The notes under the pieces were generated by a model, which was not told where the DNA came from, did no database searches, and saw only the letters and a program-made list of their open reading frames with translations. Of a DNA stretch of 64,000 nt, positions 24,982 to 56,342 are shown in pieces; the first letter of the stretch is position 1; each line of letters opens with the position of its first letter. The translations under genes were made by a program, and so were the position numbers. Source of the stretch: Toxonevra muliebris (taxonomy: Eukaryota > Arthropoda > Insecta > Diptera > Pallopteridae); contig OY829330.1 in NCBI GenBank assembly GCA_963691655.1, positions 186,001-250,000 of the forward strand. Direction: 5' to 3'.

Positions 24982-26919
24982 AAATTCTGTTAGGTTAGGT
25001 TAGGTTGGAGTTGCAGCCTTGAAAGCACACTTAAGCACATTTAGGCTCATTGTGATACCACAGTACGGCGCGACTCCCCCATTTACGGATTGGAGAACCA
25101 TGAGGATTCCATAATGAATCTGGCTATGTCCTTAATATTTACGGATGATAGCTCGGACAGACTAGTGAAGAAAGGTGAGCCCAGGAGTTTCAGTCTCCTC
25201 CTGGCCAGGGATGGGCATTCGCACATGAAACGGAGGACTGTTTCTTCCTCCTCCTCAGAGCCGCAGCCAGGACAGAAGTCATTGAATGGCAGTCCTAGTC
25301 GTGCAGCATGTCTCCCCATTATGTAGTGTCCCGTGAGCACCGTAGTCGTAATGCTGATGGAGTTTCTGCTGAGGTTGAATAGCTGTCTAGTTCGTATATT
25401 GTCCATAGTGGTCCATGTTAGCCTGGTAATACCACAGGTATGCTCGGCTACCCAGGTTTTTTTTTGCTTTCTCAAGGTAGTTTTGCTTAATGGCTAATTT
25501 AATACACGTAAGAGGGACACCAATTGTGCAGGAAGGTGATATATCTGTAAGCTGCGAGCCCTGTTTTGATAACTCGTCGGCATTGCAGTTACCTGAAATA
25601 TCCATATGTCCAGGCACCCAATATAGGTGGACCTGAGAGTGACTCGACAAAATGTTGAGTGAAGATCGGCAGTCGAGAACAAGCTTTGATGTAGTGAAAA
25701 CACCGGCAAGGGACTTGATTGCTGCTTGGCTGTCCGTGTAGATGCAGATATTCTTATCGAATGAATCGTTGCGAATAAGCCACTTGGACGCTTGATAGAT
25801 AGCCATTACTTCCGCCTGAAAGACGCTGCAATGGTCAGGAAGTCGGAAAGAGAGTCTGAGATCTAACTTACTAGAGAAGATGCCACGGTCGACTCTTTCC
25901 TCCGATTTGGATCCATCTGTATAGATGTCAATTGAATTGTCAGTGACCACCTCGTCATTAGCCCATTCCTCTCTACTGGGGATATGGATGAAGAACGTGT
26001 GGTTTAAATTAGAGGTAGAGCAAATGTAGTCTACGTTAGTTGGTACGGACATATCGTGGATTAAAATCTTGGCATGGCCCAGGTTTGACCGGGTCCAGCG
26101 AGTTAGGGCACTGAGTCTGGCAGCAGAGCACTTAGCTTGTTGCTTAACCAGAAGTGAAGTTGGCAACCAATGAAGGATTGCGAAGAGAGCTTTTGTGGAG
26201 GTAGTACGGAGGGCCCCAGTAATCAATATGGCTGCCGCTCTTCTAACCTTATCCAGTGGTTTAAGGTTGACCGCCTTTGCAGTACCTGGCCACCAGAAGA
26301 CTGATCCATAAAGAAGATTAGGCTTGACCACTGCTGAATAAAGCCAGGAAGTGACTCGAGGTTGAAGACCCCATCTTGTTCCTAATGCCCTCTTACAGCA
26401 GTAGAGAGCGCAAGAGACTTTCCGTACTCTGTCTGCTATATTAGCTTTCCATTGAAGTTTAGGATCAAGAACAAGTCCTAAATATTTGACGCGCTAGCTA
26501 AGGCAAAGCGAGGTACCATTAATTTTGGGTAGGGCAAAAGTTGGTATTTTATACTTTCTAGTAAAAAGCATAACCTCTGTTTTGGCAGGATTAACATTAA
26601 GACCGAATTCACGGCACCAGTGAGACAGAATGCTAAGTGAGTGATTTAGCCGTTCTGAAAGAGTAGCAACGTATTTGCCGGATACTGCAATAGCAATGTC
26701 ATCTGCATAAGCTATTATTTTGCAGCTGGTTTGGTCTAATCTGTTTAATAGTATGTTCACCACAAGATTCCAAATAAGAGGCGATAAAACACCTCCTTGT
26801 GGTGTGCCCCTATTGACAACCTTTTTGACTTTATCATTTCCGATAGAGGAGCTGATGATACGTGTTTTAAGTAGTTGTCCTGTATGGGACGCCTTCCCTT
26901 CATACCCAAAATTTTGTTA
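24982..26919 (-). pseudogene. 5'-truncated RNase H-bearing LINE (LINE3)
   Basis: The minus strand encodes, in order: reverse transcriptase motifs (NRGTPQGGVLSPLIWN near 26810, AYADDIAIAV at about 26690-26720, FGLNVNPAKTEVMLFTRKYK); the thumb (RVKYLGLVLDP, LYGSVFWWPGT); RNase H (IDIYTDGSKSEE, VFQAEVMAIYQASK, IYTDSQAAIKSL, VHLYWVPGHMDISGN); and a Cys-rich C-terminus (CPGCGSEEEEETVLRFMCEC). Stops and shifts occur near 26494, 26332 and 25475. It ends with an (AACCT)n tail at 24990-25007 on the minus strand. AAATTCTGTTA (24982-24992) and AAATTTTGTTA (26909-26919) look like its target duplication with one mismatch. It is one of the best-preserved LINE copies here. Confidence 0.9.
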
Positions 26920-27100: not shown

Positions 27101-27571
27101 TTAAGTCCGTTCCCGTACTTTTTGGGTAAAGTCTTCTAAACTGAGAGTAAACGAAAAATGCTCTCTCTGATACACAAAAATGCACAAAAGTACGGGAACG
27201 CACAAAACCACTTTTCTTGCGCGAAACAAAACGTCAAATTTTAACGACAGTTAAATTCAAAAAACAAAGTTTCTGTGATATTTAATAAAATAAAAACTGT
27301 TAAATCTTACAAGAAAATAAATAAATAATGAAAAAATTAAACATAAATTATTCAATATATTTCCACAAAAGCAAAACAGCAGATTGTTTGACACTTTTAA
27401 CATTTTTACCGAAACATTTCGTGAAAAAAGAAGAGATTTTCGTGAAAAAAGAAGAAGACAATTACTCTCTCATCTCTGCTCTCATTTGCAAGTTTTTTGA
27501 GTACGGGAACGCTTTCTGGGCTGTTTTGGGCGTACACGTTCACCCGCGTTGTAGTACGGGAACGGACCTAA
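27101..27571. mobile_element. MITE with GTCCGTTCCCGTACT termini
   Basis: The left end TTAAGTCCGTTCCCGTACTT is mirrored by AGTACGGGAACGGACCTAA at 27553-27571. The core GTACGGGAACG also recurs internally at about 27191 and 27500, so four copies of the terminal motif exist in 470 bp. Open frames crossing it (27328-27609) are incidental. Confidence 0.7.
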
Positions 27572-28106
27572 TGAAGCAATTTCAGGTTGATATAAGCTTT
27601 TCAACTTAATTTAATATATGGACGTATTTTAACCAGGGAGCGGAAAAAATGAAAATAAAATTAATTATCTACAGTATCCTTTTTTTCATAAGCGACAGTC
27701 ACAAATACGAAAATCTTGAATTTGAAATTTCAAAATCAATGCAAACTTTCCCCCGCTCCCTGCTTTTTACTTTTAAGTATTTTCTTTTCTATAAAAATCT
27801 CTTATTTAAAAGCATTTTTAGAGGATGTGACTTTTTCCGTCCTACAACTATAAAGTGTAATTCTACAGACGACGATATTTTTGACCGATCGAATGAATCT
27901 GGACTTTGTCTCGTTTCTCTGTCTCGCAGTCATTCTGCTTAGGGCAATATTTGGATCATTAATTGATTTTGCCTTACTTTAGTTACTACTTCTAATTTTC
28001 GTTTATACAAATACAGAAACAAGTAATTGTTACCGTGTTCGGTTATTTTTTTCAATAGACGATTGCCCAAAAACAAACATCTATACAACGAAAATTATAA
28101 AATGTT
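27572..28106. other. Noncoding
   Basis: An open frame at 27649-27942 gives an F/K/S-rich translation with no recognised similarity. Nothing else is seen. Confidence 0.4.
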
Positions 28107-28771
28107 AGTTTTTTAGGAGACTATGAAAATTAAATCTAGAGGTTAATTTTCAAAGTCATGACTTAAGTTCATGTCAATTTCGTTATTTGAAGTTATATAT
28201 AAGCAGGTTAATGAACAAATGTAGCCATCACAACAACGATGTATATAGAGACGGGCAAATCAGACGGCCGTTTCGGAATCCGCCACAATTCGTCATCAGT
28301 GATCTTAGTGATAGTTCTTAATCTTTCAATATCCTATATAAGCTACTGATTTGATTCCAAATATCTTCACGGAATAGAACTTAAGTCTTGACTTTGAAAA
28401 TTAACCTCTAGATTTAATTTTCATAGTCTCCTAAAAAACTATCATGAACTGATCGAATGGGGACCGTTCAGAAAAAAAAAATGACACCTAGAATCATTTT
28501 CTCACAAACACACACACATTCTAATGTACTAGACTTTCAAATAACGAACTGTTTTGCAAACTAGCTACAATGGGGAAAAAACAACAACATAAGTGTATAG
28601 AACGGTAGTGGTAGTTTCTTTCAATATCTCTATTCAGTGAAGATATTTAGAATCAAATCTGTAATTCTGGGTTATGATTTCTTTCAAATATTAGTAGCTT
28701 ATATAGGATATAGAAAGATTAAGAACTATCACTTAGATCACTGATGAGGAATTGTGGCGGATTCTGAAACA
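28107..28771. repeat. Two interlocked inverted repeats
   Basis: Pair 1: about 28107-28171 (TTTTTTAGGAGACTATGAAA, TAAATCTAGAGGTTAATTTT) returns inverted at about 28377-28441. Pair 2: about 28265-28379 (TCGGAATCCGCCACAATTCG, TTCTTAATCTTTCAATATCC) returns inverted at about 28628-28770. The right arm of pair 1 begins where the left arm of pair 2 ends, so the two cannot form simple nested hairpins. It lies downstream of the onecut coding region and may fall in its 3' UTR or just beyond. Confidence 0.65.
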
Positions 28772-28806
28772 GTAAAACATTTATGAAAATTCATTTTTAA
28801 AGGAGC

Positions 28807-28812
28807 TTTATT
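28807..28812 (-). terminator. Candidate onecut polyadenylation signal
   Basis: AATAAA on the minus strand about 330 bases beyond the last possible onecut stop. In AT-rich DNA such hexamers are common, so this is only a candidate. Confidence 0.2.
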
Positions 28813-29138
28813 AATTTGTACCTAATTTCAAATATTCCTAATCAGTTCGGTTATAAGAAGATCAAACTAGAGTAGGTTTCCATAAGGAAGTCTTATATCG
28901 GACCTCAAGAAATGAAATGCTTGAAAATAATGGATCTTTCGTAAAGATCTTCTACAATTTGTCAAGAAGATGCTTAACACAAAATGAAATGGGTTCTTAA
29001 CTATCGACGTCATGTTGCACTCATAAGCTTGCAAATTGAGTTAAACGAATACATATATACAAAGTGCTTCCTTTACCTTTTGAGAAGCATAATAATTATA
29101 CGAGTATATCTCCACCCATTGGTTTGATATAACTTTAG

Positions 29139-30713
29139 CTAGCACACGATCATTACTTTCAAATCTTCAAGATCATCATTTAAATATTCCACACAATCAT
29201 TGTCATTAATGTTGTTCATACAAATAGGTAAAACATTCGATTTACTGTAATTTCCTTCAGGTTGTTTTTGCTGCTGCTGTTGTTGCTCCTGATGGTGGGG
29301 TAAATGTGGTTGTTGTTGGTGTTGCAAAATGTTGCTCATGACCTGTTGTTGTTCATCTGTCGCTGTGGCATCGTAAATTGTTAATGGGGAAGTAAGAATT
29401 TCAGATGATGATAAATTTTCGTCTTGTTGCTGCCGAAGTTGATATTTTTGAAAAAATTTAAATTTATTATCGCTCATGTTGACATCATCATCAATAACAT
29501 TGCCATCATTATCGATGTTATGATGATTGTTGTGATCATCATTAGCATAATCAATATCGTTAATAACTACCACAACAGATTTCAGTGCTTCATTGTTATC
29601 GTCATCGTTAATCATATTGTCGCCATTGTCGTTGGCATCAACAATGCAAGTGACAGATGCAGCTGTTGCATCTTCATCATTAATGTCTGTTACGTATGGA
29701 ACATCCGGAGATAATTGTAAATGTTGATTAATATCACCATCATCATTGCAACTGTCGATTAATATATCACGAGAGTTATCGTTCTTCAATATGAATTCTG
29801 TTACCATTTTATTATTGTCTATGTGATGAGTATTCTGATTAACGATATTAACATAATCATTATTATCAGCAATGCCGGTAATCCGACGTTGATGCTGATG
29901 CTGTCGCATAGTAATATGTTGTTTTAGATTCAAATGTTTAGCTTCATGTTGCTGCTGCTCCTGCTGGTGATGTAGAAAGTATTGGTCCATGGTATTTTCA
30001 AGTGGTGCTGCTGCTGTTTCTGTTGTTGTGATTATTTTCCTAGCATTGTGTCTTTGATGCTCATAAAAGTTGCGGCTCAGTTTGTTGTCATGCAATTGTA
30101 ATTGTTGTTGCTGTTTATGATTTTTATTATTATTGCTTAAGTTAGTTTTTGGTGCTGTTGATTTCCGTATCAAAATACTTTTAAATGACTTATGTATTGT
30201 ATTTAATTTAACAATATTGCCGTTATTATTTATATTACTCGAATTATTACAGTTATTTTTCTTATTAGTGGTATTGCTATTCTGATTGCTGCCGTCATTT
30301 TTATTGTTGCTGTTCATTATATGCAGCATTTTCACTTTACTGAATTTATTAACATTCGGAGCAGAAATAACTTTAAATAAATTGTAATTGTCTTTTAGTG
30401 TTGTTAGTACTGCAGTATCAATTTTTTGTTTTTTAATTACAGTTATTTTATTATTTGTCAATACATTGCTAGCATGTACAACAGCAGCTGATAATGTAGT
30501 TGTGGTTGACGGTGTTATTGGCTTTAATGTTTTTTTACTGCGGTTTTCGCTTTCATTTTGCATTGCTACTATATCATCGGTTAATGCATCTAAAAATTGT
30601 TGTTGCTGGTGCTGCTGTTTATTATTACTATTGCAATTATTCTGCTGCTGTTCCTGTTGCCTAATTTGAATCTCACGCTGTTGTTCGGCTTTTATTATTT
30701 GCTCTGTATTATG
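29139..30713 (-). CDS. onecut: onecut: in-frame readthrough extension after UGA
   Basis: From the base after the onecut UGA (30716-30714) the same frame stays open for 524 sense codons to a UAG at 29141-29139. The sequence begins HNTEQIIKAEQQREIQIRQQ. It keeps the Q/N/H/D-rich character of onecut (polyQ near 29270, N-rich 30215-30310, NDDDNN-type acidic runs) and has more complex stretches such as FLDALTDDIVAMQNES, LTNNKITVIKKQKIDTAVLT and NYNLFKVISAPNVNKFSKVK. An open frame of this length is very unlikely by chance in DNA this AT-rich, where stops should occur every few tens of codons, and no acceptor splice site is needed to reach it. UGA followed by C is a known leaky stop context, and long readthrough extensions are documented in fly regulatory genes. 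A reading gap, a recent nonsense mutation or an alternative splice removing the stop cannot be excluded. An internal methionine exists at 30563, but independent initiation is unlikely. Confidence 0.75.
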   Translation of the reverse strand, partial: HNTEQIIKAEQQREIQIRQQEQQQNNCNSNNKQQHQQQQFLDALTDDIVAMQNESENRSKKTLKPITPSTTTTLSAAVVHASNVLTNNKITVIKKQKIDTAVLTTLKDNYNLFKVISAPNVNKFSKVKMLHIMNSNNKNDGSNQNSNTTNKKNNCNNSSNINNNGNIVKLNTIHKSFKSILIRKSTAPKTNLSNNNKNHKQQQQLQLHDNKLSRNFYEHQRHNARKIITTTETAAAPLENTMDQYFLHHQQEQQQHEAKHLNLKQHITMRQHQHQRRITGIADNNDYVNIVNQNTHHIDNNKMVTEFILKNDNSRDILIDSCNDDGDINQHLQLSPDVPYVTDINDEDATAASVTCIVDANDNGDNMINDDDNNEALKSVVVVINDIDYANDDHNNHHNIDNDGNVIDDDVNMSDNKFKFFQKYQLRQQQDENLSSSEILTSPLTIYDATATDEQQQVMSNILQHQQQPHLPHHQEQQQQQQKQPEGNYSKSNVLPICMNNINDNDCVEYLNDDLEDLKVMIVC

Positions 30714-31049
30714 TCACAACATATCGTCGTTATCGTGTTCATTATCATGATCACCATCCAAATCAAAATCATCATGTCCCAAATCTAAATCCATATCACC
30801 AACATCATCTAAATCCAATGAATGTTGATTACCAGGCGATAGCGATGTCTGGTGATGATTATTAATACTTAGATGATGACTAGTAGAATTATTGCCATGA
30901 TTGTTGTTAATATTCTTTGAATCATCATCACGCCATTTGTCCATCGATCTTCGTCGCGCATTCATAAAGAAATTTCCAACCGTTGTCGGCTCCAAACCAA
31001 GTTGACGTGCGATTGTCACTTGCATTTCTTTTGAAGGCCTCTTTGTTTC
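30714..31049 (-). CDS. onecut: onecut coding exon 3: homeodomain helices 2-3, acidic tail and first stop
   Basis: The exon starts at 31049 directly after a TTTATGTAG acceptor and in phase 0 with exon 2. It encodes ETKRPSKEMQVTIARQLGLE, then PTTVGNFFMNARRRSMDKW: the second half of the homeodomain. The recognition helix has Phe at position 48 and Met at 50 (NFFMNARRR), the F-M pair that marks the ONECUT/HNF6 class. An N/H/S-rich linker and an acidic stretch (DLDLDDVGDMDLDLGHDDFD) follow, ending DDML then UGA at 30716-30714 with C as the next base. Terminating here gives a 1,082-residue protein; readthrough adds the 29139-30713 segment. Confidence 0.93.
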   Translation of the reverse strand, partial: ETKRPSKEMQVTIARQLGLEPTTVGNFFMNARRRSMDKWRDDDSKNINNNHGNNSTSHHLSINNHHQTSLSPGNQHSLDLDDVGDMDLDLGHDDFDLDGDHDNEHDNDDML

Positions 31050-31639
31050 CTACATAAACAAAGAAACGGGGAAATGGAGAACGGTAAAATTAAAATTATC
31101 TTTCAATTTGACAATCTAAACTGCAATTGTTCAATAGATTATTTTTTTTCAATTGGGGAATTGTTTTCGGTAAAATCAGGAACGCTGACCACTAATCTGG
31201 CTTTGAATTTGCAGGATAGATATTTGGATGAACCGCTATTTTTCAACCAGAATAATCGACCTTGTGAGCATTTTTAATTTTTAACACCACATTGATGATT
31301 GCATGTTAAAATTGGTGTCTAAAGGTACTGACGGTAAAAACGGCAAATGCATGTTTTTACTGGGCATCTCAAAAGTGAAATGATGAAGTTATCTTTACGA
31401 ATCCTGAAATTTCCTCTAAAATGGCATTCAATCGTTAGTGCATATTTTACAATAAATACATATTTTTGGGAAACTGTGCATGTTTTTGCATATTTTACAA
31501 TAAATGCATGTTTTTCGCATTTTTTTTTTTTTTAATTCACATATTTTTAATTTTTTAATAATTTTGTTAACTTTATTATTTGACGGAAAATTTCCTGGGA
31601 TACCTTCATAGCCACTGATAACAAGTGTGGGGAACATGG

Positions 31640-31990
31640 CTTAATGCAGTCAAATATTACGCACAAAACTCCGAGGAATTCGGTAAAATAGTGAAAAAAC
31701 TTGACGATACTAATTCGACATTAGTTAAAATTGTAAAAGAATTTTAAGAGTTGCCATCCCTCAAATCTTAACTGATTTTTGTATACAGGAATTATGGGGT
31801 TTTATGTGAAGTATTCACAAAATTAGAAGGAAATAATTCTTTGAAAGATGTAGCAGATTTAGTCAATAAAGCTTTAAAAAACATGCCCAAAAAATTATTG
31901 AAAAATTAGATTTTGTTCTCTAAAAATACAAAGGTTTCTCTTAAATAAGGCAACTTGCGAGTATTTTGGAATTTAATGAAGAAAATTGTT
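31640..31990 (+). pseudogene. Degraded hAT-type transposon ORF fragment
   Basis: The plus strand translates, with stops and shifts, as WLNAVKYYAQNSEEFGKIVK, KLDDTNSTLVKIVKEF, then NYGVLCEVFTKLEGNNSLKD and VADLVNKALKNMPKKLL. This resembles the C-terminal end of CGBP1/hAT-like transposon proteins of arthropods, where a WxxAxxYY...F..VV..L-D motif is followed by F..L...I..LE...L. It is short, broken and identified by eye only. The upstream 31280-31540 contains repeated GCATGTTTTT/ATTTTACAATAAATGCAT motifs, probably from the same element. Confidence 0.4.
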
Positions 31991-32159
31991 TTACAAACAA
32001 CTGTTCTATGAATGAATTGTGTGCCTTTAACCCTTTCATGTCAGAATTTGAACGGAACTTGATAGAAACCTTTTGTACTTAAATTACGGTTACTTAGGAC
32101 CTAACAAAATTGCATAGCTATCTTTCTCTATAGATAGAACCCACGAAATCGTTGATCCA

Positions 32160-33649: not shown

Positions 33650-34876
33650 GGTTAGGTAAGGTTATAGAAGAGGGTGTGCTACGCACTTCAACTCGGAAAC
33701 CTTATTAGGCTCATTGTGATGCCCTTCATTTTATATTTGGGTGACCTTCCCTATCTGTTCGGTTCCCTGCGGATCCAGACTGGATCCTTTGGAAACCACC
33801 CAGTCTTGACGAGAAAGCTGTTTAAATCTGAAATCTGTGCATCAGCTATGTCTGTTAGTCCGTCAAAGAACCTTGCCCCGATAGTTCGGAGCGGTCGTTC
33901 CTGAAATGAGGGACAATGGCATAGGAGATGCTCGACCGATTCCACAGCGTCCTCGTCTCCACATATCGTTGGTCGATAGCCGCCATTTGCATAACATTAC
34001 GCCCACAGCACAGTGACCGGTGATAACACCCGACACCATGTACACAGCATGTGTATCGAGTCGCAAAATACTTTTCGTCCTTTTAATGCTTAGTCGTGGC
34101 CACAAGGTACGTGCAATCCTGCAATCTTCCCTGGCCGACCAAGCTCTGTTTGTGGATGCAGTTAACCACTCTCCTATTGTCCCTGCTGTTTCACAAAACG
34201 GTGGTAGTAGCGTGCTGATTGCGTCACTGGCAGGCATTGATGACCCTGCGCGGGCAAGTTCGTTCGCCATGTCGTTCCCTTCAATATTGCTATGTCCGGG
34301 AACCCAACGTAAACTTACCTTACAGTGTCTTATGCTGCTCAAAACGTTACGACAATCTTGGACTACCTTTGATTTTATGACAGTGGAACCGATAGCTTTC
34401 AAGGCAGCTTGACTATCCATACAGACTACAGCTTCCCTAAAGAAGGTGCTTTTTATGTGTTCCGCTGCCTTCATGATGGCAAAAACCTCCGATTGGAAAA
34501 CGCTACAGTAATCCGTGTAGTCTATATGACCTTCGGGTTTGTTGCATTTCACAAAAAATTCCCCCCCCAGTTCCTCCATCTGTCTTCGATCCGTAAGAAA
34601 AGTAGACTGTTGAAAGGTCTTCAACATCAGGCTATAGCCAGTTGTCTCTGGAGAGAGCTTTGAGTACCGAATTATCCCAAAATATTTGGTCTCTTTTAAT
34701 AGGTTCAGAGTGAACCCTTCGATTTTAGGAAGTATGATCTGCTGAATTTTCCTTTTCTTGATGAATAGGACTAGTTTAGTCTTCGCAGGATTAACTCCAA
34801 GACCATTGCGCCTTGCCCACCTTGAAAGGTGGGCAAGCACCGAGTCGTGGTGCATCGGCATTTCTATAATTAAAAA
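33650..34876 (-). pseudogene. LINE2, 3' segment (end of RT, RNase H, C-terminus)
   Basis: The minus-strand frame 34861-33863 gives LSRWARRNGLGVNPAKTKLV (just after the RT YADD region), then RNase H (VFQSEVFAIMKAAEHIKSTF, VCMDSQAALKAIGS, VSLRWVPGHSNIEGNDMANE). The normal YTDGSK active-site segment is missing. 33945-33751 adds VEHLLCHCPSFQERPLRTIG, the Cys/His C-terminus. The 3' end carries an AACCTTACCTAACCT-like tail (33651-33663, minus). The 5' portion is at 51586-52006; the RT palm between them (roughly 300 codons) is absent. Confidence 0.88.
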
Positions 34877-35490
34877 ATTTTAAATTTTTACTTTTGTTGT
34901 GTCGCTAACTTGTAGCGATAGTGTTAGAGTAATTTTTAGCCGGGTTACTCGCGTGTTTTTTTTTTATTTTAACTTTCGGGAATTTATTTTTTGGGTCGCG
35001 ATCCTTGTGCGCGAATATAGAAGGGTTCATAAACCCATTAACCCAGGGAGTACCATTTTATCTTTATATTATTTTTTTTTGTGGTCACTTTTTGGCAGTT
35101 GGTGCTAACTGCAGGTGACTATTTTGTTTGTGGAGTAGGCTTCTCCTACTATTAACTTTATTTTCTCTCCTTTCTTCTAAAATTTGTGAAAGTCCGTTTG
35201 TGTGCTCGTGCGCCCAGCAGGTTGTGCGGGTGAAATTTAATTTTACATTTTGTAAAATTGTGTGGTAGCTCAGTATTGAGCTACAGAAATCGAGCGTTTC
35301 AAAAAAATATATATGTTTTTTTCATTTTATTGTGAAGGTGCGACCACTTCTCCACTGAGATAGCTGGCAACGTAGGCTTTGTTATCCGGTTTCGTTTGTT
35401 TGAACTTTATATCGTTTGTAAAGTAGAGTCGCGGTAATTATTATCATTATTTTTTTTATAAAATTTACAGAGGCAAAAGTGACGGTGACA
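34877..35490 (+). repeat. LTR element A, left LTR
   Basis: 614 bp matching 51033-51585, from ATTTTAAATTTTTACTTTTG to AGTGACGGTGACA. The main difference is a segment of about 60 bp (35287-35347) absent from the other copy. After it comes AATTGGCGCCCAACGTACGG (35491), a primer-binding-site-like sequence of the tRNA-Lys type used by gypsy elements, so the element reads left to right. The exact left edge is uncertain. Confidence 0.8.
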
Positions 35491-36013
35491 AATTGGCGCC
35501 CAACGTACGGCATTCATTTATTAAGTGATTTAAAAGTGGGAATCGGAAGTCTCACGAACGCGTATTTTTTGTGTTTTTTTTTTTATATTTTAGTGAATGT
35601 GTCACTAATAATTTTTTTCCACTTCCAGAAGAAAATTACTTTGAGTTCCAGCGGTTTGAACATCAGCAGTCGGAAGAAAAAAATTGTGTGCCCAACTTTG
35701 TCCGAAAAACTTGGTTGGTGGTTTTGGTGTTGCGTTCGGTGAGTCCATTTATTATTACTTTTTTTAATTCGGTTTATTAAATTAAACTTTTTGATGTGTA
35801 AACATTTTAGCTCACGGTATGGGCAAAATTTCAAATGTGTAAAATGTAAGAATAACTGTATCGTAAGATGTAAGATAACTGTAACGTCCAGTTCCCCTCT
35901 CGCTCGCACTACTGCGCGGCATGACTGTGCTACTCTAAACAACAAAGAGAAGAGAAGAAGAGAGGGAGAAATTAAAATACGAGCGGAGTTTGTTTGTTTA
36001 TGTTTTGATGAAA

Positions 36014-36542
36014 TTACTCACTCATATATGTACATACGAAAACAAAATGTGTGTGTACATTTATTCGTGGCAGAATTATTTGTTGGTATTAAAAGTATGA
36101 AGATCGACTGTACAAGCAGAGAAGTCGCCGTAGCAAACACAGGCGTTTGATAGGTTTTACATTCGGATAATTAGATTGGATTAAAATTAAATATCTTTTA
36201 AAATATAAAAATAATACAAAATGATAAGTAATAAAGAATCTAGGATATTTTCACTAGGATATTTTCTTTCCTATTTCCTTTTCATTCTATACGATCCACA
36301 AAAAGCTCATCTTACTCACTCATATATGTACATACGAAAACAAAATGTGTGTGTACATTTATTCGTGGCAGAATTATTTGTTGGTATTAAAAGTATGAAG
36401 ATCGACTGTACAAGCAGAGAAGTCGCCGTAGCAAACACAGGCGTTTGATAGGTTTTACATTCGGATAATTAGATTGGATTAAAATTAAATATCTTTTAAA
36501 ATATAAAAATAATACAAAATGATAAGTAATAAAGAATCTAGG
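36014..36542 (+). repeat. 231-bp direct duplication with LTR-derived filler
   Basis: 36014-36244 and 36312-36542 are essentially identical 231-bp copies. The bases between include 36251-36314, which match 38471-38534 inside the LTR of element B (TCACTAGGATATTTTCTTTC ... AAAAGCTCATCTTA). The overlap CTAGGATATTTTC at the first junction looks like microhomology. Confidence 0.85.
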
Positions 36543-36621
36543 TTTCAATAAATGTATAAACAAAATGTAGTGATAATGATAGCAAACCACGGCATTATAC
36601 AAATTTTGCTTTGTGCATTAA

Positions 36622-36826
36622 CCTTAGAAAGGCAACACTTTTTTATCTATGTAAATAGCAAATATGTTAAACAGAAAAAGTCAAACTTATTTATTATAAA
36701 ATCACTTATTTACTTCAATAAAAATACATTGTTTCTTATTTTTATTAAATGCAGTTGAGGTAAATCTCTTTACGGTGCTTTTAAAAAGTAGTGGGGTGAT
36801 TGGTCACCCCTGTTGCCTTTCTAAGG
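36622..36826. mobile_element. piggyBac-type MITE, 205 bp
   Basis: Ends CCTTAGAAAGGCAAC and GTTGCCTTTCTAAGG are perfect 15-bp inverted repeats. TTAA (36618-36621) and TTAG (36827-36830) flank them, fitting a TTAA target with one later change. A second perfect hairpin (GGGGTGA TTGG TCACCCC, 36793-36810) lies next to the right end. Noncoding. Confidence 0.75.
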
Positions 36827-36899
36827 TTAGATGCGGAAAGCAGTTATCATCGCCTGAGAATTGATTTACAGCTGAGTTGTTTTAATTTAAATTATTAAC

Positions 36900-38781
36900 T
36901 GTTATTACCCCTTGTCATCGTACCTGATGTGGCCTTCCAGCTAGCTCAAAGTGTTCGGGTGGGGGTTTCTTAACCCGCCACACCAGGTCGAGGGGATAAC
37001 AATAAGTGTGTCTGCGGCACAGGTCACACTCATACAACTCAATAAATTGTTTTCCTCTCTATCCTGCAGTTCCGCTCCTACTTCCTTATTCGCCCTCACA
37101 ACCTTCGCTACATTATCATTGCCTCGTTATCCTTTTTGTAGCGCCCTTAATTGGCCTATTAACCTTTTGCCCCCCCCCCCCCCCCCCCTTCACCTTTCAC
37201 TCATCTCATTTCTCTTCCAACCATCGATCCACCACCGTTATCCATAAAAAAATTACCAATTCATACGATTACCTTGTTTCATACAGATATATTTGAATTT
37301 GGCATATTTGAAAATACATAAAAAAAAAATCTTACTTAAATCCTAATATTAACTTAACTCAACATTGACCACAAAAAAATATCAAAAAAAAAACTTACTC
37401 CTCGAACTTTAGCACTTTCCTTTGTTTTGTACTAGGATTAACTCAATTTTCAGACCTTGGTACCAGATACCCTAAATAGCCGTTTGGTTTTTCGGCCTCA
37501 AGAAAATTTAACCGACACTTCACCCTACCTAACAGAGCTCTATTAAATATGGTCTCAGTATTTTACGCAATAGGCGTTATCCGGATAATCTTGTACTAAG
37601 TACGGGTATTTGGTTTGCCTGGCTTACGAAAATTTTCCAATTGGGTTGTTTCAAAAAAAAAGGAATGCAAAAAAAAAAATGCTAAAATTTTGTAGGATCA
37701 CAAAATCTCTCACAAAAAAAACTTTAAATAAAAATAACAAAAAAAAACTAAATATATATATATAAATAAATTAATAATGATCTTAATATTAAATAATGGT
37801 ATACGTCTCTTGGTTCGAATATTCTACATGCAACACAAAAGACTTAGCAGAAACGTAACGTCACTACGTGCACTTTAAAATTATTTCGTTACATACAACT
37901 TCGCTGATCTGTTTATGTGTGTATATGTGCTTCTTTATATAAATATTCACCATCCCCTTAGAATATGGGTTGCTGTGTTATCGTGCGGGAGGCCGGAACT
38001 CTGGATCCTCAATACCTTTATCGTAGCTCGAGTCCCTAATGCTTTCAAGAGTACACAGACTATTCTGTTATTATGTGGAGTCACTTCAGCTACCCGTACT
38101 TATTTTGGGTCTCTACCAAATACACAAAAAAAAACTTCTAATACGTTCTCTTAATTACTTTACATACACTATCACTCACATTACTTGGTGCATAGATCCC
38201 TCGATAAATTTTCCTGGAGATGCCCACACGTTGACGATACAGCTCACTTAAAATTAATTTCTCACTTTTTTTTACATAACACTGCACACTTAACTCCTGG
38301 CACTATGGCCTTCCCGCACTTAATTCTCAGACAGTAATAATCCGTTTCTCTAGTTCTACCCTAATATATAACCTAATATTTCTATATACTTAAATTTAAA
38401 CAAAACAGTTTTCTCTTAATTCCTATATATAAAACATAATCGTACCTTTTCCTTAGCAACCCCAACGGAATCACTAGGATATTTTCTTTCCTATTTCCTT
38501 TTCATTCTATACGATCCACAAAAAGCTCATCTTACATCCACACATGATCCAGCCCTACCTTATCCAATCATTCCTGGTCTATTCCTACCACAAGCTCCAC
38601 GCATTTGACGTTTCGTGTTTTTGTTGTTGTTGTGGCTTTCCAACCACAACAGCGGCATCAAAAATTAACCAAAAAAAAAAAAATAAAAATAGATAAAAAT
38701 AAAAAAACATGCCGTCTATTTAGGCGACCTGTGCCGCTTAAGGGCCCAACGTAGGCTTTCGCCCACGCCCTGTCCATAACA
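36900..38781 (-). repeat. Element B 3' LTR (about 1.88 kb)
   Basis: Begins TGTTATTACCCC and ends CATAACA, with TGTTA/TAACA inverted tips. It is almost identical to 44710-46588; differences are mainly poly-C length near 37170, a few substitutions and a small AATTTTC duplication. Short open frames inside are proline- or poly-C-driven and not genes. In element orientation (minus strand) it is the downstream LTR. Confidence 0.9.
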
Positions 38782-38845
38782 GTGTCTCCTGCCACAGTGA
38801 GAGCTGCCGGGCCTACCCTCTGGCAAGTCTTATTATTTATACGTT

Positions 38846-40504
38846 TTATTGTTTTATGTCTTTGACGTGTGAAGGACCTAAGTTTCTCCCGTTTAGAGTT
38901 TCTAATTCATACATGTTGTTGCCCAGGGCTTTTACTACACGACATTTGGTAAATTTGCGACAAAATTTTGCATTGATATTGTTTTTGAAATCGCTAAGCA
39001 CGAAGTTCCGCTTAAAAACTTCTTGCCCCGGCTTAAACGTCACTTCACGTTTCTTTTTGTTATATCGAACCGCACTTTTTTCAAAGGCTCTGTGCAGATT
39101 TTGTCTAATTTTATCGCGTATTAGTTGTAATCTGTCTTGTGGACTTAATATGCACATTTCATGGTCATTTAAAGAATTCAAACGTCGCGCTAAATGATAA
39201 TCCTCACCACTCGTGAACATGTTCTGACCGAACAGAGCGAAAAATGGTGTCACTCCCGTTGCCGTGTGCACAGAACTACGTAGTGCGCATTCAATCTCGG
39301 ACAGATAGAGATCCCAATCTCGATGATCTTCTTTCAAATACGCTCTTACCGCAGTCAGAACCGACTGATTCACCCTCTCGGCACTTGTAAATTGTTTTCC
39401 GTTGTCGGAGTGTATCGTTTCCGGCACCCCGAATTTATGAAACACTTCCTGCACAAGGAAGTCCACCACATTCGCGGTCGTCGCGTCACGCATCGCTCTT
39501 AAAAACATAAATTTTGAAAAATGATCTACAACAATAAAAATGTAGGCATTACCCTTCTTTGACCGCGGATATTTACCCAGAAAATCGATATAGATTTTCT
39601 GGAAGGGTCTTACTGTTATTACTTCCTGACCGATTCCCGGACGCATGTCGCGATTATGATGCTTTGTTTCTTTGCATACTATGCATTCTCGAATAAAATT
39701 ACGCACCGGCACTACCATGTTTGGCCAGTAAAACCATTGGCGCAATCGGTGGAGCGTTTTTGCTATACCTCCATGAGACTTCGTTTCCGGTTCATGAGCC
39801 TTTGCTATAAGGGTCAATGTCACGGCTGCGGGGATCCATAGTTTCCATGTTGTTTCTTCTCTCAACTCGTCATCTCGATCGAATCGTGTGCGCTTATACA
39901 CGTATCCATCTTCCACTTTTAAATCAGGTAATTTTTCCGCGTTCTTTTTAACTGTTTCTATCAATTCCAGATATTCCCGCGATTCGAACTCTGTCGTTTC
40001 CATGTCTACTAGGGGACCTGAGGTATCGATTTCTTCCACCATTCTCGACAGCGTGTCGGCCACGATATTTTCGGAGCCTTTTCGATGCTCTACCTGGAAA
40101 TCATAGGACTGCAACTGCAATGACCACCTCGCAAGCCTGCCGCTTAGGTCTTTTAGAGACATCAACCATTTAAGGCTAGCGTGATCCGTGACTACGGTAA
40201 ATGCCATCATCTCAATGTATGGTCGGAATCTCTTAATAGCTAATACTGCTGCCAAACATTCTTTCTCAGTTACAGAGTAATTTCGCTGGCAATCGTTTAG
40301 CTTCTGTGAGAAATATGCCACTGGTCGCTCTGTTCCGTCCTGATCCTTCTGATACAACACCGCACCTACTCCTAAATCAGATGCATCACATTGCACCCAG
40401 AAACGTTTTGAAAAATCTGGATGCCGCAAAACTGGCGCTGTTGTCATGGCCCGCTTCAGCTCCTGAACTGCTTCTGTTGCTGCTTCCGTCATGGTAAACT
40501 TCAC
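38846..40504 (-). pseudogene. pol: Element B Pol: RNase H and integrase
   Basis: RNase H motifs come first (FWVQCDASDLGVGAVLYQKD, FSQKLNDCQRNYSVTEKECL, VVTDHASLKWLM, VADTLSRM). The integrase follows: the HHCC zinc finger (KSHGGIAKTLHRLRQWFYWP, CIVCKETKHH), IDFLG with the first catalytic Asp, HSDNGKQF with the second, then TGVTPFFALFGQNMF and a C-terminal FKPGQEVFKRNF. Between SDNGKQFTS and ERVNQSV about 30 residues of the usual core are missing, an in-frame deletion. The last residues IKQ stop 65 bp before the 3' LTR. The frame is offset from the RT frame with a deletion at about 40500. Confidence 0.9.
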
Positions 40505-41123
40505 CCCTTTTTTTAGTGTATCGTTTAAAGGAGCTGACAGCTGTACCTAAAAAACTGCGCACTTGTTTTGCCGTTTTGGGTAATGGCATGTTTTGTATCG
40601 CTGATACCTTTCGCGGATCGGTTTTCAACGCTCCGCCCCCGATTATATACCCCAGATATCGTAACTCTTTGAAACAAAATTTAGATTTTTCTAGACCAAT
40701 GGTCAGGTTTGCTCTTTTAAAGCACTCAGCTACTTCATTAAGCACTCGTACATGGGATTCAAAATCTGGCGTTATCACTAACAAATCGTCTAGGTATACG
40801 AACACGTTCGATTTTAATTTGTTTGGCACGACCTTGTCCATCAACCTACATAGACGCTGGGCCGCATTGCAGAGGCCGAACGGCATGACAGTGAATTGGT
40901 ATAGTGGCCGGCCGGGAACTGTAAAAGCGGTGTATTCCTTACTTTTTTCATCCAGCGCGATTTGCCAAAATGCATACTTCAGATCTACACTACTAATGTA
41001 CTGCGTGTAATCTATACGACTTAATATGTCTTCTATGTTTTGCAATGGATACGCATCTTTTACTGTAAGAGTATTCAATTTTCGGGCATCCAAACAGAAC
41101 CTATTTTTACCAGGCCTACGCAC
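40386..41123 (-). pseudogene. pol: Element B Pol: reverse transcriptase
   Basis: Shows KNRFCLDARKLNTLTVKDAY, PLQNIEDILSRIDYTQYISS, VDLKYAFWQIALDEKSKEYT (motif A), MPFGLCNAAQRLCRLMD (motif B), VFVYLDDLLVI (motif C, YLDD), then LEKSKFCFKELRYLGYIIGG and KQVRSFLGTA. This is a classical Ty3/gypsy-class RT. It is shifted relative to the protease frame at about 41110 and to the RNase H frame at about 40500, where part of the connection domain is missing. The copy is therefore inactive despite young-looking LTRs. Confidence 0.9.
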
Positions 41124-41641
41124 AATCGTAGATTTTGCACAGCAGGAGATACTGGGTAGTGTCGATCTTTCACCGGCACCGCATTATCTACGAGTTTTAT
41201 AGTATGCACCTCAAGAGATGTTCGCCCTAGACCGTGTTCCTCAAAGGAGATGAATCGCTTTTTTACCGTCTCTATTTGTTGCACCTGCAACTCAGATAAA
41301 TCATGCATTATCGGATCTCTCTTCTCTGCGTCTACTGTACCATTGGGCAAATTTTCTATGCTTACTTCGGCCACTCCTACTACATCGGGAGCTAGATGAA
41401 AACTACGCCAGAAATCCCGTCCCAGGTAAATATTTTGAAATAAATCCGGACATAAATAAAAAGTAATGTTTTGTGTTTCACTTTTATACGTTACAGGCAC
41501 CGTGACCCTCCCCAATATTCTGTGGCTCCGATTCGATGCTGTACTAATCGTACCATAATATGGATCTACTCTTAAACTTAATTCTTCTACGAGTTCGCGA
41601 CAGCCATGCCCTAGTACAGAAGCCGATGCACCGGTGTCCAA
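41075..41641 (-). pseudogene. pol: Element B Pol: aspartic protease region
   Basis: Starts at MDTGASASVLGHGCRELVEE, which holds the D-T-G-A active-site motif of retroelement proteases. ILGRVTVPVTYKSE and NIYLGRDFWRSFHL (flap and ILG-like second motif) follow, then the linker into RT (KDRHYPVSPAVQNL). The ATG may not be a true start, because protease is normally made from a Gag-Pol fusion. Confidence 0.85.
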
Positions 41642-41780
41642 TAGCCCCCTGAGAGATTTGGATTGAATTTCAAACTCAGCATATACACCATCGGAATGAT
41701 TTTGATTATCTGCTTTGCGAACTGCTGCTGCTACTATCTGTCTAATTCTTTTTCTATCCTTATATCGTCTCCTGGCTTTT

Positions 41781-42189
41781 TTAATTTTTTTTGGACACTA
41801 CTCGCATGCCGTTCAATGTTCCTTCCTCAAAAATTCTTCTGCGCACCTCATAATAGTTTTGGAGTCGCTGCTCTATTGGTTTTGTAATTATCTTATCTTT
41901 ATCATTTAATCTTGTTTTATTTTTTTGTAGTCTTTCTAATAAACTTATTTTGCCTTTCTTTACAGGTACCTCATCTTCCCCATTTTCTTGGGCTATTCCT
42001 ATAGTCATTGTGGACGCGTCCACCTTTACTCGGGGGTTTGAGTGGAGCGTGATTCCCCCGCTCTCATCACGTTCCTCTTCGCGTTTCCCGTCCCACATTT
42101 TGGGCAATTTGGAGTTATTACATCATCACGACCGCACTTGTAACAAAAGATGTTACGTTGTAGAGACATACAATCTTGAAAGGAGTGTC
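41781..42189 (-). pseudogene. gag: Element B Gag C-terminus with zinc knuckle, frame-broken
   Basis: Immediately after the gag frame stops at 42190, another minus frame reads GHSFQDC...FCYKCGRDDVITPNCPKCG, a Cys/His zinc-knuckle array expected at the end of Gag. Beyond it, 42107-41781 continues as a charged linker. Gag has thus been split by a frameshift or stop near 42190. Confidence 0.6.
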
Positions 42190-43563
42190 CTATCTGTATA
42201 ACCATTTCGCCGCATTATTTCGTTTACCCGTATGCTGCAATTCGTCAATCCCTATATCTCCCAGATATTCTTCCTCTTCATCGTTCACTACCACCCTGTT
42301 TACATTATACGAACGTTGAGTTGGATATTTTACATTTTGTTGTGGCATTGCTCGTAGATCACGCCGAGGGTAATTCCTTTCCACTTCTTTGCATTCTAAA
42401 CGAAGTTGATCTACATTGTAGACTACCATAGGGTAAACCATGCGCGCCAAGCTATCACGCAAATTGTGCTTTATGATTTTAATTGCGTCATACTCTGGAA
42501 TAGGAGTTTGAAGTCGCGACCGAAGGGTACACATTGCATGGAAGAATGCATCTACCGATTCGCTGGGGAGTTGCTTCCTCTCAACTAACTCTCTCATACA
42601 TTCAAAGTTGTTACGACCATTTCCGAACTGACGAGTCAGTGCATGGCGCAGGGACTCCCAATCATCTACCCTGTGCGTTTTAATGTGTAACCAGTACCAT
42701 TCTCTAGCCTCACCTACTAATAATAAATGAAAGTCTCTAATAATTTCAGACCAATCACATCCATATTGTGCTTGCATGTGCTCTATTCTGAAAATGTAAT
42801 CTTCTATTGTGATTACATCTCGATGTCCTTCATACTTTATGCCCCATTTATCTAATTTTAAAATCTTTTTGTAATTGATATTTTGACTTTCGTTGTTTTC
42901 TAGTCTATGTGGATGCGGACTTATTTGACGTGGGTGTGGATCATCTGGGAGGAAAAGATTGTATTGACCTTGTCGGGGTAACTGATTGTGGGTTTGCCTA
43001 TCGCGTTGTGATTGAAACATGTGTGGCCTATTCTCTTTACGCTGCCCCTGTCTTTGCTGCTGATAATGCTGTAAATATTGTTTTTCTCGTGAGTTAGTAC
43101 TACTACTAGAACTTTTTGGTTTATTTTGTGAACTAGGTAAGTTTTGGATATCATAACTATTCACTCTCGGATTCTCGAAATCTTGCGTATTAAGCCTATT
43201 TGGTTGTTGCTGCCTATTAATATTGGGTGGCATTATATTATCTGTGCTTCCTATGGTGAGACGCTGCATCATTTCAGCATAACCCGACCTTAACCCTTCT
43301 ACTATTTGTTTTTCAATGTGGGCCTCGAAAGAAATACGTTGCTGTTCCTGGGATTTCGAAATGGTACTTATGATTTGATTTAACTGTTCTTCAGAGAGAG
43401 CGCCAGTATTTGGCCTACTTTGACCTTGAGGATCCCCAACCTGAGTTGACCTTGCTTCGGATAAAATAGGTAAGTTTAATTTGGTATTAACACATTGTTT
43501 TGTTTTAGGTATGGCACCTTGACTAACTGCTGCACCAGATTCCTTTTGTATCTGCGCACTCAT
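42190..43563 (-). CDS. gag: Element B Gag (capsid region)
   Basis: A 457-codon frame from a methionine at 43563. The first half is Q/N/S-rich (QQRQGQRKENRPHMFQSQRD and similar). The second half is the gypsy-class capsid: ITIEDYIFRIEHMQAQYGCD, AREWYWLHIKTHRVDDWESL, RHALTRQFGNGRNNFECMRE, FFHAMCTLRSRL. It structurally packages element RNA. The long LTRs and this capsid recall the Osvaldo/Ulysses lineage, but I cannot verify the family. It stops at KWLYR before the zinc knuckles. Confidence 0.85.
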   Translation of the reverse strand: MSAQIQKESGAAVSQGAIPKTKQCVNTKLNLPILSEARSTQVGDPQGQSRPNTGALSEEQLNQIISTISKSQEQQRISFEAHIEKQIVEGLRSGYAEMMQRLTIGSTDNIMPPNINRQQQPNRLNTQDFENPRVNSYDIQNLPSSQNKPKSSSSSTNSREKQYLQHYQQQRQGQRKENRPHMFQSQRDRQTHNQLPRQGQYNLFLPDDPHPRQISPHPHRLENNESQNINYKKILKLDKWGIKYEGHRDVITIEDYIFRIEHMQAQYGCDWSEIIRDFHLLLVGEAREWYWLHIKTHRVDDWESLRHALTRQFGNGRNNFECMRELVERKQLPSESVDAFFHAMCTLRSRLQTPIPEYDAIKIIKHNLRDSLARMVYPMVVYNVDQLRLECKEVERNYPRRDLRAMPQQNVKYPTQRSYNVNRVVVNDEEEEYLGDIGIDELQHTGKRNNAAKWLYR

Positions 43564-46588: not shown

Positions 46589-46746
46589 AATAACCTAGCA
46601 TATAGATTATACATAAAATCCTAATATGTGAGTTTATGTACATGGCATTCAGCTGGCTTAACTGTTTACACATCAAATATCGTGCGTGCCTTGCACACAT
46701 CCTTTTTTTTACTTTAATTTTTTAAAACAAAACTTTTTTTATTTTT
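46589..46746. other. Interval between element B and the Penelope-like element
   Basis: Remnant of the host sequence of these insertions, probably element A. AAAACTTTTTTTATT near 46733 recurs at about 50779-50793, just past the Penelope-like element, and may be its target duplication. Confidence 0.4.
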
Positions 46747-53294: not shown

Positions 53295-53488
53295 TTTGAA
53301 TATTGCTTTCAATGTACGTCTTTGCAAATCTGTAAATACCAGCCGTGGCTTCTTTGGTTGTGACATATGCTCAATATGTGGTTCATCCTTACGGCGGCAA
53401 ACAGACACAGTACCACCACCCGCAGCACCAACGCCAACACTTGCTCCTCCTCCTCCACCACCACTATTTCTACCACTTCCATTTGCAC
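53295..53488 (-). CDS. onecut: onecut coding exon 2: start of homeodomain
   Basis: 194 bp. It is bounded by an acceptor (TCATCTCTTGTAG, AG at 53490-53489) and a donor (AAA then GTAAGTAT). It encodes a Gly/Ala-rich linker (ANGSGRNSGGGGGGASVGVG), then CRRKDEPHIEHMSQPKKPRL and VFTDLQRRTLKAIFK, the homeodomain N-terminal arm and helix 1. It enters in phase 1 (its first two bases GT complete the Gly codon begun in exon 1) and leaves in phase 0, both matching the adjoining exons. Confidence 0.93.
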
Positions 53489-53623: not shown

Positions 53624-56342
53624 CGTTACTGTTTCCACCACTACCACCCCCACCACGTTGAGGTATTTGTGCTGCTGCCATGCGCAAGGCTGACATGCGT
53701 TGAAATTCAGGCTCTTGCAACCATTTGAACATACGTCGAAAAGTTTCACGTCCAGATTTTAGTTTTGACCATGGTTTTGGATTTCGTAGCAAATCGGAGA
53801 GGGTACCCTGTGAACGACAGAGTACGCGCTGAGCGAATATTGCTTGTGGTATGCTGTAACGTTTAAGTTCTGCTGATATGCGGTGCGCAAGCTCTTTAGT
53901 ATTTATCTCTTCCAAGTCGCCTCCAATACCATTACCACAATTGGTAATGCCTGAAGTACCACCACCCCCTCCACTACTCCCGCTACCGCTATTTGAGTTA
54001 TTATTGGTGTTTACAACCGTATTACTGCCCGACACGTGTGTTATATTCAATTGCAATTGTTGTTGTTGCTGGTGGCTAATATTGCACATATTTGTGAAGT
54101 TGCCGACAACATTACTAAGACGTATGCAGTTGTTGTTCAAGCTAATGTTTAAATTGCAGTCGCTAGTGACTGAATGTGATTTAATATTTTGCTGTCCCAC
54201 TAATTGCAACTCCTGCTGCGCAAGACGAGTACTAGTTAAATTGGTTGCGTTAATCTGCTGTTGTTGTTGCTGCTCTTGGTGATGCTGATTTTGGTGCTGC
54301 TGCTGCTGATGTATAGTCAACAACGTGGTTGCCGTGCCAATATCAGTGGGTGGAGGCGATGGTGTTAGAGAAACTACAACAGCACCATGCTGCAATGTTG
54401 ATATATCAACAATGCCACTACTCGCATTTGTCAACGATGCAGCCGATAATGTAGCCATTGTGCTATTTATGGGAGGTAGTGACGAAATTGATTGATTCAT
54501 AATGCTGCAACCGCCGGGAGAATGTATCGAAACTGAACCCGCCGATACTGAATGCGGACTTAGTGCTGGGCTATGTTGAAGTTGCAATTGTGAATTACGC
54601 CCGTCTGAATGGCAGGATGATGATGGCGGCGTTGTTGTCACAATTAGATCACTTTGATGTGTACCGTAAGGGGATTCGTAACCGGTGACGACATTCTCGC
54701 CCACAACTGTGCCATTGCCATCAATTGCTGCTGGCGACAGGCATATGACTTGTTTCTGTGGTGTTGCTTGATGTGATTTCATATTTGTTGTACTACTGCT
54801 TGTAGCCTTGCATGCCGATGACAATGGTGGTGACTGTAATTCTGTCGAATGACTGTACGCTGATTGTGGTGAGAGTGCACCACAATGACTTGGTGATGCA
54901 GTATGTAATTCACATGCCACAACCATTCCCGATAATGTATGCGAAGGTGAGTTGGCATAGTTATGTGGAGGCGACATAGACATACCCATTGATGGCAGCT
55001 TATCATATGATGAATAAGGTGATTGCACACTGCTAAGGCTACTTAAACTTAATCCACCAAGGCTGCTTTGATGTGGCATAACAGTAAACGATCCAACACC
55101 GCCAGATGATGAGTTACTATTGCTACCGGTGCCACCGCCACTGCCACTGCCGCTAACCCCACCACCACTTAAGTGACTGCCAGTTATGTGGCCGCCATAG
55201 GCAAACTTATCTGACATCGTGGATATAGGCGGCAAAGGCTGCAAGGGTGTAAGTGTGGCGTACGATGATGTTGGACTAAATCCAGGTGGTGACATGCGTT
55301 CATTTACTACAGACGTTAGTGTTTGGTAGGTGGTAGGCTCTAGTGAATTATCCCCCACTACTCCAACAACTCCCAATTCTGGACTCAACAATTGCGTCGT
55401 TGAGTCACGTGAGTCCTCGTGTGGCTGAACAATAACTGACAGAGCTTCATGGTGTGGCGTATGATGATGACTTGAATGATTTGAGTCCGCATGTGAGTGA
55501 TGATGATGATTATGATGACGTTGATGGTGGTGCGAGGACTGCTGCTGATGATGATGGTGGTGTGAATGCTGTTGCTGATTGCAGTAGTGCTGCTGCTGTT
55601 GAGTATGTTGATGATGATGCTGATTCAATGTTACTTCCACTGCATCCGACGACAAATCATCCATAACACCAACATTCGATACATCAATGCTATTGGACGT
55701 GCTATGTGTATGATTATCACCACAGATTCCACTGCTGCTGCTATTGTTGTTGTTATTATGGTTAACAATAACAAGCCTATGTTCCTGCTTTACGGCAATA
55801 ATATGCCCTGCTGTTGAACTGGATGAAGAGCCCACAGATAGTGCATCTAATGTAACATCCGATCCAACAAAGTCGACAGGGCTACTTGCGCTTAAACGAG
55901 GATGTTGGTGGTGTTGATGAGTCTGCTGCTGCTGAAGGTGCCGCTGATGATGATGCCCATTTGTAGAGACTTGCAATAGTTGTTGGTGATGTTGATTATA
56001 GTTATTATGATGATGCTGATGATTTTGCGATGATGGTTGATATAATGATTGTACAGGGCTATGACTAAGACCGTCAATAATTGTGCGCACCATTACCACG
56101 GAACCAACAGCATCAACATCTGCAACAGTGCCATTGCTCGTCGAAAAGACATGATGTGCAACGACGTCGTTCTCATCTCGCGATGGCGTACGCTCCACCA
56201 GTGATGAACTAACCGATCCTGAATGACCAGTTATGATTTCGCTTGTATCATCAACCAGGTGGCTGGCAAGTGTTTGATGTTCGATGATTTCACTGATTGA
56301 TTCCATGCTCATTTTAATAATTGAATTACGTAAGTTTTTCAT
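53624..56342 (-). CDS. onecut: onecut coding exon 1: N-terminal regulatory region and CUT domain
   Basis: 906 codons plus one base. onecut is a sequence-specific DNA-binding transcription factor, used in fly neurons and the eye. The single CUT domain is at about residues 811-891 (EEINTKELAHRISAELKRYS, IPQAIFAQRVLCRSQGTLSD, LLRNPKPWSKLKSGRETFRR, MFKWLQEPEFQRM). Upstream is long low-complexity sequence: His/Gln runs (about residues 240-300), Gly/Ser runs and a Ser/Pro-rich section (about 340-520). The start could be Met1 (56342), Met11 (56312, good AAAATG context) or Met13 (56306; MESISEIIEHQTLASHLVDD); the two later ones look more natural, because the first ten residues are not obviously conserved-looking. 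It ends at donor G|GTAAGT. The first 26 or so codons also exist in a downstream duplicate (57370-57449). Confidence 0.95.

What the first reader, a model, noticed from the sequence alone, without database searches (positions are those of the whole stretch)
29139..30716. onecut appears to use stop-codon readthrough to add a 524-residue C-terminal extension
The onecut frame ends at UGA-C (30716-30714) after the acidic tail. The same frame then continues with no stop for 524 codons, keeping the N/Q/D-rich style of the protein and including non-repetitive stretches. In DNA this AT-rich, stops should appear every few tens of codons, so selection to keep the frame open is the simplest reading. UGA followed by C is a leaky context, and readthrough of long extensions is established in fly regulatory genes. 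Whether onecut is already on a published readthrough list I cannot say.
Basis: partly seen in the sequence, partly recalled or inferred. Interest (0 to 1): 0.88.

Follow-up and report, generated by a model that had tools for sequence, protein, structure and literature searches.

The report
Fly onecut gene with readthrough-type tail
In a fly related to the true fruit flies, the gene for the regulator onecut is followed, straight after its normal stop signal, by 524 more codons free of stops, so some ribosomes probably ignore that stop and make a much longer protein; this would be one more case of a process already common in flies.

Summary
On the minus strand onecut (CUT domain plus homeodomain, 1082 aa) ends at TGA-C (30716-30714), and the same frame stays open for 524 codons to a TAG (29141-29139). 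This is not chance: 0 in-frame stops against 40 and 91 in the other sense frames, with 36-44 expected. Codon scores favour this frame in five of five segments. The stop is old: 35 of 36 fly-type relatives end at the same place, so it is neither a recent nonsense mutation nor a base error. A second collinear copy, 2.7 Mb away, keeps TGA-C, the open frame and the TAG; its three indels there are multiples of three and substitutions run at about half the nearby noncoding rate. Against this, amino-acid changes look nearly neutral (dN/dS about 0.84), protein searches found no relative of the extension, and no RNA or ribosome data were available. Splice sites that could remove the stop score poorly, and Rfam matched nothing there. 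Best reading: stop-codon readthrough, a long member of a known insect class. Whether onecut is on a published list could not be checked.

The parts
53624..56342 (-). onecut exon 1 coding part (first in-frame ATG at 56342; later candidate ATGs give 1072, 1070 or 999 aa), holds the CUT domain
53295..53488 (-). onecut exon 2, first half of the homeodomain
   Evidence: AG acceptor, GTAAGT donor
30714..31049 (-). onecut exon 3 up to and including the first stop: second half of the homeodomain and acidic tail ending DDML
30714..30716 (-). first stop codon, TGA followed by C; same place as the end of 35 of 36 fly-type relatives compared
29142..30713 (-). 524-codon in-frame extension: net basic in its first half, acidic in its second
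30534..30713 (-). first 60 residues of the extension, predicted as one long helix (pLDDT block means 61-90, single sequence, no alignment)
29139..29141 (-). second stop codon, TAG, kept in the second copy

Best explanation
The onecut mRNA is translated in two forms. Most ribosomes stop at UGA-C and give the usual ~1082-aa protein (inferred). A fraction decode the UGA with a near-cognate tRNA (inferred; mechanism recalled) and continue for 524 codons to the UAG, adding a largely disordered N/Q/D-rich tail that begins with a predicted helix and ends acidic. Shown here: the open frame, its coding signature, the age of the stop position, and its upkeep in two diverged copies. Inferred: that readthrough rather than another route lets ribosomes in. 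The role is a guess: the acidic second half, dotted with hydrophobic residues, could serve as an activation or protein-binding module on a minority of Onecut molecules.
For: 0 in-frame stops against 40 and 91 in the other sense frames, also outside low-complexity parts (0, 9, 28 over 176 codons). Codon log-odds (onecut exon 1 against local noncoding sequence): 0.14 bits per codon in frame against -0.56 and -1.11, best in five of five segments. The frame is open from the first codon after the UGA; the first Met is codon 51. 35 of 36 fly-type tails end at the same place. Second copy: TGA-C, TAG and open frame kept; 3 of 3 indels are multiples of three against 2 of 15 in noncoding parts (p 0.012); 34 of 1569 sites changed against 113 of 2882 noncoding (p 0.0015). 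TGA and a following C are typical of insect readthrough candidates, and CAGCAGCA, enriched in such regions (passages of PMC5100048), has 7 overlapping matches at 5 places here. Best in-exon donor scores 1.15 against 6.77 and 5.66 for the true donors.
Against: Amino-acid changes between the two copies are near the neutral ratio (25 N, 9 S; dN/dS 0.66-0.95 by ts/tv weight, 0.84 at weight 2), significantly more N-rich than onecut proper (21 N, 27 S; p 0.012). dS of the extension (0.026) and of exon 1 (0.029) both lie below the noncoding rate (0.039), so part of the lower rate may be regional. That none of the 34 changes made a stop has probability 0.24 by chance. No relative of the extension in the protein collection, and no best alignment of the 80 hits covers more than 53% of the query region, the share that lies before the stop. 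No unusually stable RNA fold around the stop (four stretches, z -0.09, 1.51, -1.35, 0.12). No expression data. CAGCAGCA may simply follow from glutamine runs.
Confidence: 0.72

Rival explanations
1. Alternative splicing removes the UGA: a donor inside the last exon joins an acceptor in the extension, giving a long isoform without readthrough.
For: Weak in-phase sites exist, for instance a donor at 30832 and an acceptor at 30703, both phase 1.
Against: Best donor 1.15 against 6.77 and 5.66 for the gene's true donors; best acceptor 2.53 against 4.81 and 5.68 (approximate matrices written from memory; donors scanned in 31049-30716 only, acceptors only down to about 30251). An intron from 30832 would cut out most of the acidic tail that fly onecuts share. 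The frame is open right from the UGA, which splicing further down would not require.
Confidence: 0.11
2. The extension is a separate coding sequence, started at its own ATG (codon 51 or later) on a dicistronic or separate transcript.
For: An ORF of 474 codons remains from the first Met, and in one genome readthrough and dicistronic cases are hard to tell apart.
Against: The first 50 codons after the UGA are open and in onecut's frame; at a stop density of about 0.083 per codon that has a chance of roughly 1% before counting the 1-in-3 frame match (my arithmetic). No substitution falls in the first 47 codons between the two copies, but at 2% divergence this is weak.
Confidence: 0.07
3. The extension was once coding but is now an unused relic, or is kept open only because occasional leakage through the stop is harmful if the tail is cut or misfolded.
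For: dN/dS 0.84 between copies; no relatives found.
Against: Both copies are intact, indels keep frame 3 of 3, and the rate is about half the nearby noncoding one. PMC5100048 (passage) argues that conserved leaky contexts speak against the pure toxicity-avoidance view.
Confidence: 0.07
4. The UGA is recoded otherwise: selenocysteine insertion or A-to-I editing to UGG.
For: UGA is the selenocysteine codon and flies edit many nerve transcripts (recalled).
Against: No Rfam family matches 27500-31100 even at E 1 (that Rfam holds SECIS models is recalled). The edited A would follow a G, a poor neighbour for the editing enzyme (recalled).
Confidence: 0.02

Closest known systems
Stop-codon readthrough candidates of Drosophila and Anopheles (PMC5100048, PMC4528330; passages seen)
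   Same: UGA followed by C, in-frame second ORF with coding signature, low-complexity extension with scattered complex stretches, CAGCAGCA copies, faster evolution of the extension than of the first ORF.
   Different: 524 codons is above the usual 8-300 aa, though cases up to more than 1000 aa are on record (passages of PMC4528330). Here there is no multi-species score and no expression evidence.
[quoted passage not shown] passages seen)
   Same: Transcription factor with a C-terminal extension behind a stop.
   Different: dfr uses UAG and its readthrough is promoted by a downstream stem-loop (abstract and passages of PMC13170385); here UGA-C and no stable stem-loop.
Homeobox protein onecut of flies
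   Same: Same CUT and homeodomain, same acidic tail and stop position.
   Different: None of the 80 records returned aligns past the stop (query region up to extension residue 227); annotation pipelines would hardly add it in any case (inference).

Membership tests
Insect programmed stop-codon readthrough genes | In-frame second ORF with protein-coding signature | tested here: met
   Stops 0/40/91 by frame; codon score; non-repetitive part
Insect programmed stop-codon readthrough genes | Coding signature across species (PhyloCSF-like) | tested here: inconclusive
   Only a second copy in the same genome: frame kept, rate about half of noncoding, but dN/dS 0.84. No other species' DNA available.
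Insect programmed stop-codon readthrough genes | First stop conserved between species | tested here: inconclusive
   Position shared by 35 of 36 fly-type proteins; codon identity seen only in the two copies here, both TGA
Insect programmed stop-codon readthrough genes | Leaky context, typically TGA followed by C | tested here: met
   TGA-C in both copies
Insect programmed stop-codon readthrough genes | Coding potential falls after the second stop | tested here: met
   Scores about -1.0 in all frames, though that stretch was part of the noncoding training set; stops frequent after 29139
Insect programmed stop-codon readthrough genes | No splice, dicistronic or selenocysteine explanation | tested here: inconclusive
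   Splice sites weak where scanned, no Rfam match; dicistronic start not excluded
Insect programmed stop-codon readthrough genes | RNA structure after the stop (a minority of members) | tested here: not met
   Folding no clearly better than shuffles; not a required feature: reported for 9% of candidates (PMC5100048 passage)
Insect programmed stop-codon readthrough genes | Footprints or peptides beyond the stop | not testable with these tools
   No expression data
onecut (CUT plus homeodomain) | CUT domain followed by a homeodomain | tested here: met
   CUT E 2.6e-34; Homeobox_KN 25.4 bits (cutoff 24) and Homeodomain 23.0 (cutoff 22.9) in the half on exon 3; tree groups it with tephritid onecuts, support 98/99

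The most novel reading that the evidence does not exclude
A lineage-specific readthrough isoform of Onecut about 1600 residues long, whose 524-residue basic-then-acidic tail arose behind an ancient stop in the tephritoid line and is held open mainly by selection on frame rather than on sequence: a large new protein region being born in a transcription factor through a leaky stop.
Probability: 0.3. Interest if true: 0.62.

Novelty: new member of a known kind. Interest (0 to 1): 0.45.

Why it matters
If true, a transcription factor known for its role in nerve cells (recalled) exists in two forms set by how often ribosomes ignore one stop. The case pairs an old, position-conserved stop with a long and fast-changing tail, which makes it a handy test of how readthrough regions are born and kept. 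It also suggests that gene models of other flies may miss up to a third of such a protein.

Tried and rejected
Chance open frame: rejected. Triplet-repeat artefact: rejected as the sole cause, since the non-repetitive codons carry the same signal. Recent nonsense mutation or sequencing error: rejected, since the stop position is shared by 35 of 36 fly-type tails (the exception, Ceratitis P0007, ends in what looks by eye like another frame) and by both copies here. Transposon or other repeat: rejected, since the only two matches found in the genome are the two onecut loci (18 candidates scored) and there is no Pfam match.

Led nowhere: protein searches with the extension, whole and residues 40-136 (word-based, so insensitive to fast-evolving tails; only the 7985 candidates sharing most words were scored); RNA folding; Rfam; structure prediction beyond one helix (mean pLDDT 40.9, single sequence); literature searches for onecut with readthrough and for readthrough in Tephritidae. 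The word 'onecut' has 0 occurrences in the held main text of PMC3840789, PMC5100048, PMC4528330, PMC4999894, PMC8417969 and PMC13170385 (passages seen, none read whole).

Dropped or left out before counts: intron 1 (1 change in 134 sites) is not in the 113 of 2882 noncoding substitutions, but its one indel is in the 2 of 15; with it the count would be 114 of 3016. The dN/dS of exon 1 uses 53624-56294, leaving out the first 16 codons. The noncoding rate comes only from the two aligned blocks that hold the exons (28770-32120 and 52865-57372). In one search only plus-strand matches over 500 bases and above 85% identity were kept. The tree used 20 of the 80 hits plus the window protein; the 36 tails are those of the 80 hits that carry the fly-type motif (35 named flies, 1 unnamed record), so fly records whose model lacks that exon, such as P0067 and P0070, are not counted. 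In one search the noncoding training set is the same intron and post-TAG sequence whose scores are quoted, so those scores are partly circular; the comparison between frames of the extension is not.

Full report
What is there. On the minus strand it holds onecut: a CUT-domain exon, an exon with the first half of the homeodomain, and, after a long intron (53294-31050), a last exon with the second half of the homeodomain and an acidic tail. The joined frame gives 1082 aa to a TGA at 30716-30714, and then 524 more codons to a TAG at 29141-29139. A tree of 21 onecut proteins (20 of 80 hits plus the window's) puts the window protein with the tephritid rows (support 98/99) and outside the seven tephritids sampled (support of those seven 99/98; midpoint root), so the fly is probably a tephritoid or a close ally; no species was identified.

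It is not chance. The extension has 0 in-frame stops, against 40 and 91 in the other sense frames and 26, 23 and 35 in the antisense frames; 0 of 3000 Markov simulations at each of four orders was stop-free (means 36-44). Low-complexity codons are common (N, Q, D, H runs), so I repeated the count on the 176 of 524 codons that are not low in trinucleotide entropy: 0, 9 and 28 stops by frame; at the noncoding stop density the chance of zero is about 1e-5. A codon score (onecut exon 1 against local noncoding sequence) favours the onecut frame in five of five segments (overall 0.14 bits per codon against -0.56 and -1.11); the intron and the sequence after the TAG score about -0.9 to -1.0 in every frame, but these served as the noncoding training set.

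The stop is old. Of the 80 proteins returned for the onecut C-terminus, 36 carry the fly form of the homeodomain end (35 named flies, one unnamed record); 35 of these stop right after a (D/E)-M-L, D-I-L or D-L-L ending at the same place. The window ends DDML. The stop is therefore the normal terminus in flies, not a new nonsense mutation or a base error, and the extension lies behind it.

A second copy gives an evolutionary test. The region has a collinear partner 2.7 Mb away on the same contig, traced over C5:2874000-2941587, nearly all that was fetched; the kept blocks (over 500 bases, above 85%) are 85-97% identical. It may be a real duplication or two haplotypes in one assembly; read depth would tell. 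In this copy the TGA-C, the open frame (525 codons) and the TAG are kept. The extension differs at 34 of 1569 sites (2.2%), against 113 of 2882 noncoding sites (3.9%; p 0.0015, intron 1 with 1 of 134 left out) and 48 of 3198 in onecut proper (1.5%; p 0.098 against the extension); its 3 indels are all multiples of three, against 2 of 15 in noncoding parts (p 0.012). The counter-evidence is plain. 25 changes are nonsynonymous and 9 synonymous, dN/dS about 0.84, against 0.31 in exon 1. dS of the extension (0.026) and of exon 1 (0.029) both lie below the noncoding rate, so part of the slower rate may be regional. And 34 random changes would avoid a stop about one time in four anyway. So the frame is kept, but the residues are barely constrained at this distance. 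[quoted passage not shown]

How ribosomes may get in. Splicing out the UGA would need a donor in the last exon; the best scores 1.15 against 6.77 and 5.66 for the gene's two real donors, and the best acceptor found between the stop and about 30251 scores 2.53 against 4.81 and 5.68 (approximate matrices from memory). A separate start is possible from codon 51, but the 50 codons before it are open in onecut's frame. No Rfam family matches 27500-31100 at E 1 or better. Readthrough remains: UGA with a following C is typical of insect readthrough candidates, and CAGCAGCA, enriched in their regions (PMC5100048 passages), has 7 overlapping matches at 5 places, although glutamine runs alone could give that. 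No clearly stable hairpin lies at the stop (four stretches folded, z -0.09, 1.51, -1.35, 0.12), as for most candidates.

What the tail may do. Net charge is +17 over residues 1-270 and -34 over 271-524. AlphaFold on the single sequence predicts a helix over residues 2-60 (block means of pLDDT 61-90) and little else of confidence (mean 40.9). A disordered tail with a helical start and an acidic end fits the described style of long fly extensions: low-complexity parts with scattered conserved stretches (passage of PMC4528330). A role in activation or binding is only a guess.

Known or new. Extensions of 4 to more than 1000 residues and 328 annotated genes are reported for D. melanogaster (passages of PMC4528330), so this is a long example of a known kind. 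The protein collection gave no relative of the extension that its word-based search could find.

Noticed in passing
window 1-64000 and C5:2874000-2941587: The onecut region exists twice on contig C5, 2.7 Mb apart, collinear and 85-97% identical in the kept blocks: a large duplication or two haplotypes left in one assembly.
   Followed up: partly
34140-51586: About 17 kb of onecut intron 2 in the window copy has only about 2 kb opposite it in the second copy; the stretch holds long retroelement-like ORFs (38846-43581 and 48102-50303, by eye), so it looks like insertions into one copy.
   Followed up: partly
29139-29141: The second stop (TAG) is itself followed by CTA and a further 21 open codons; too short to judge.
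   Followed up: no
14388-14954, 25387-26916, 60333-62802: ORFs that look like a mariner-type transposase, a non-LTR reverse transcriptase and a gag-like protein, by eye only.
   Followed up: no
P0007 (Ceratitis capitata protein): The only one of 36 fly-type tails that does not end in the shared acidic -ML/-IL/-LL form; its tail looks frame-shifted, perhaps a sequence error.
   Followed up: no
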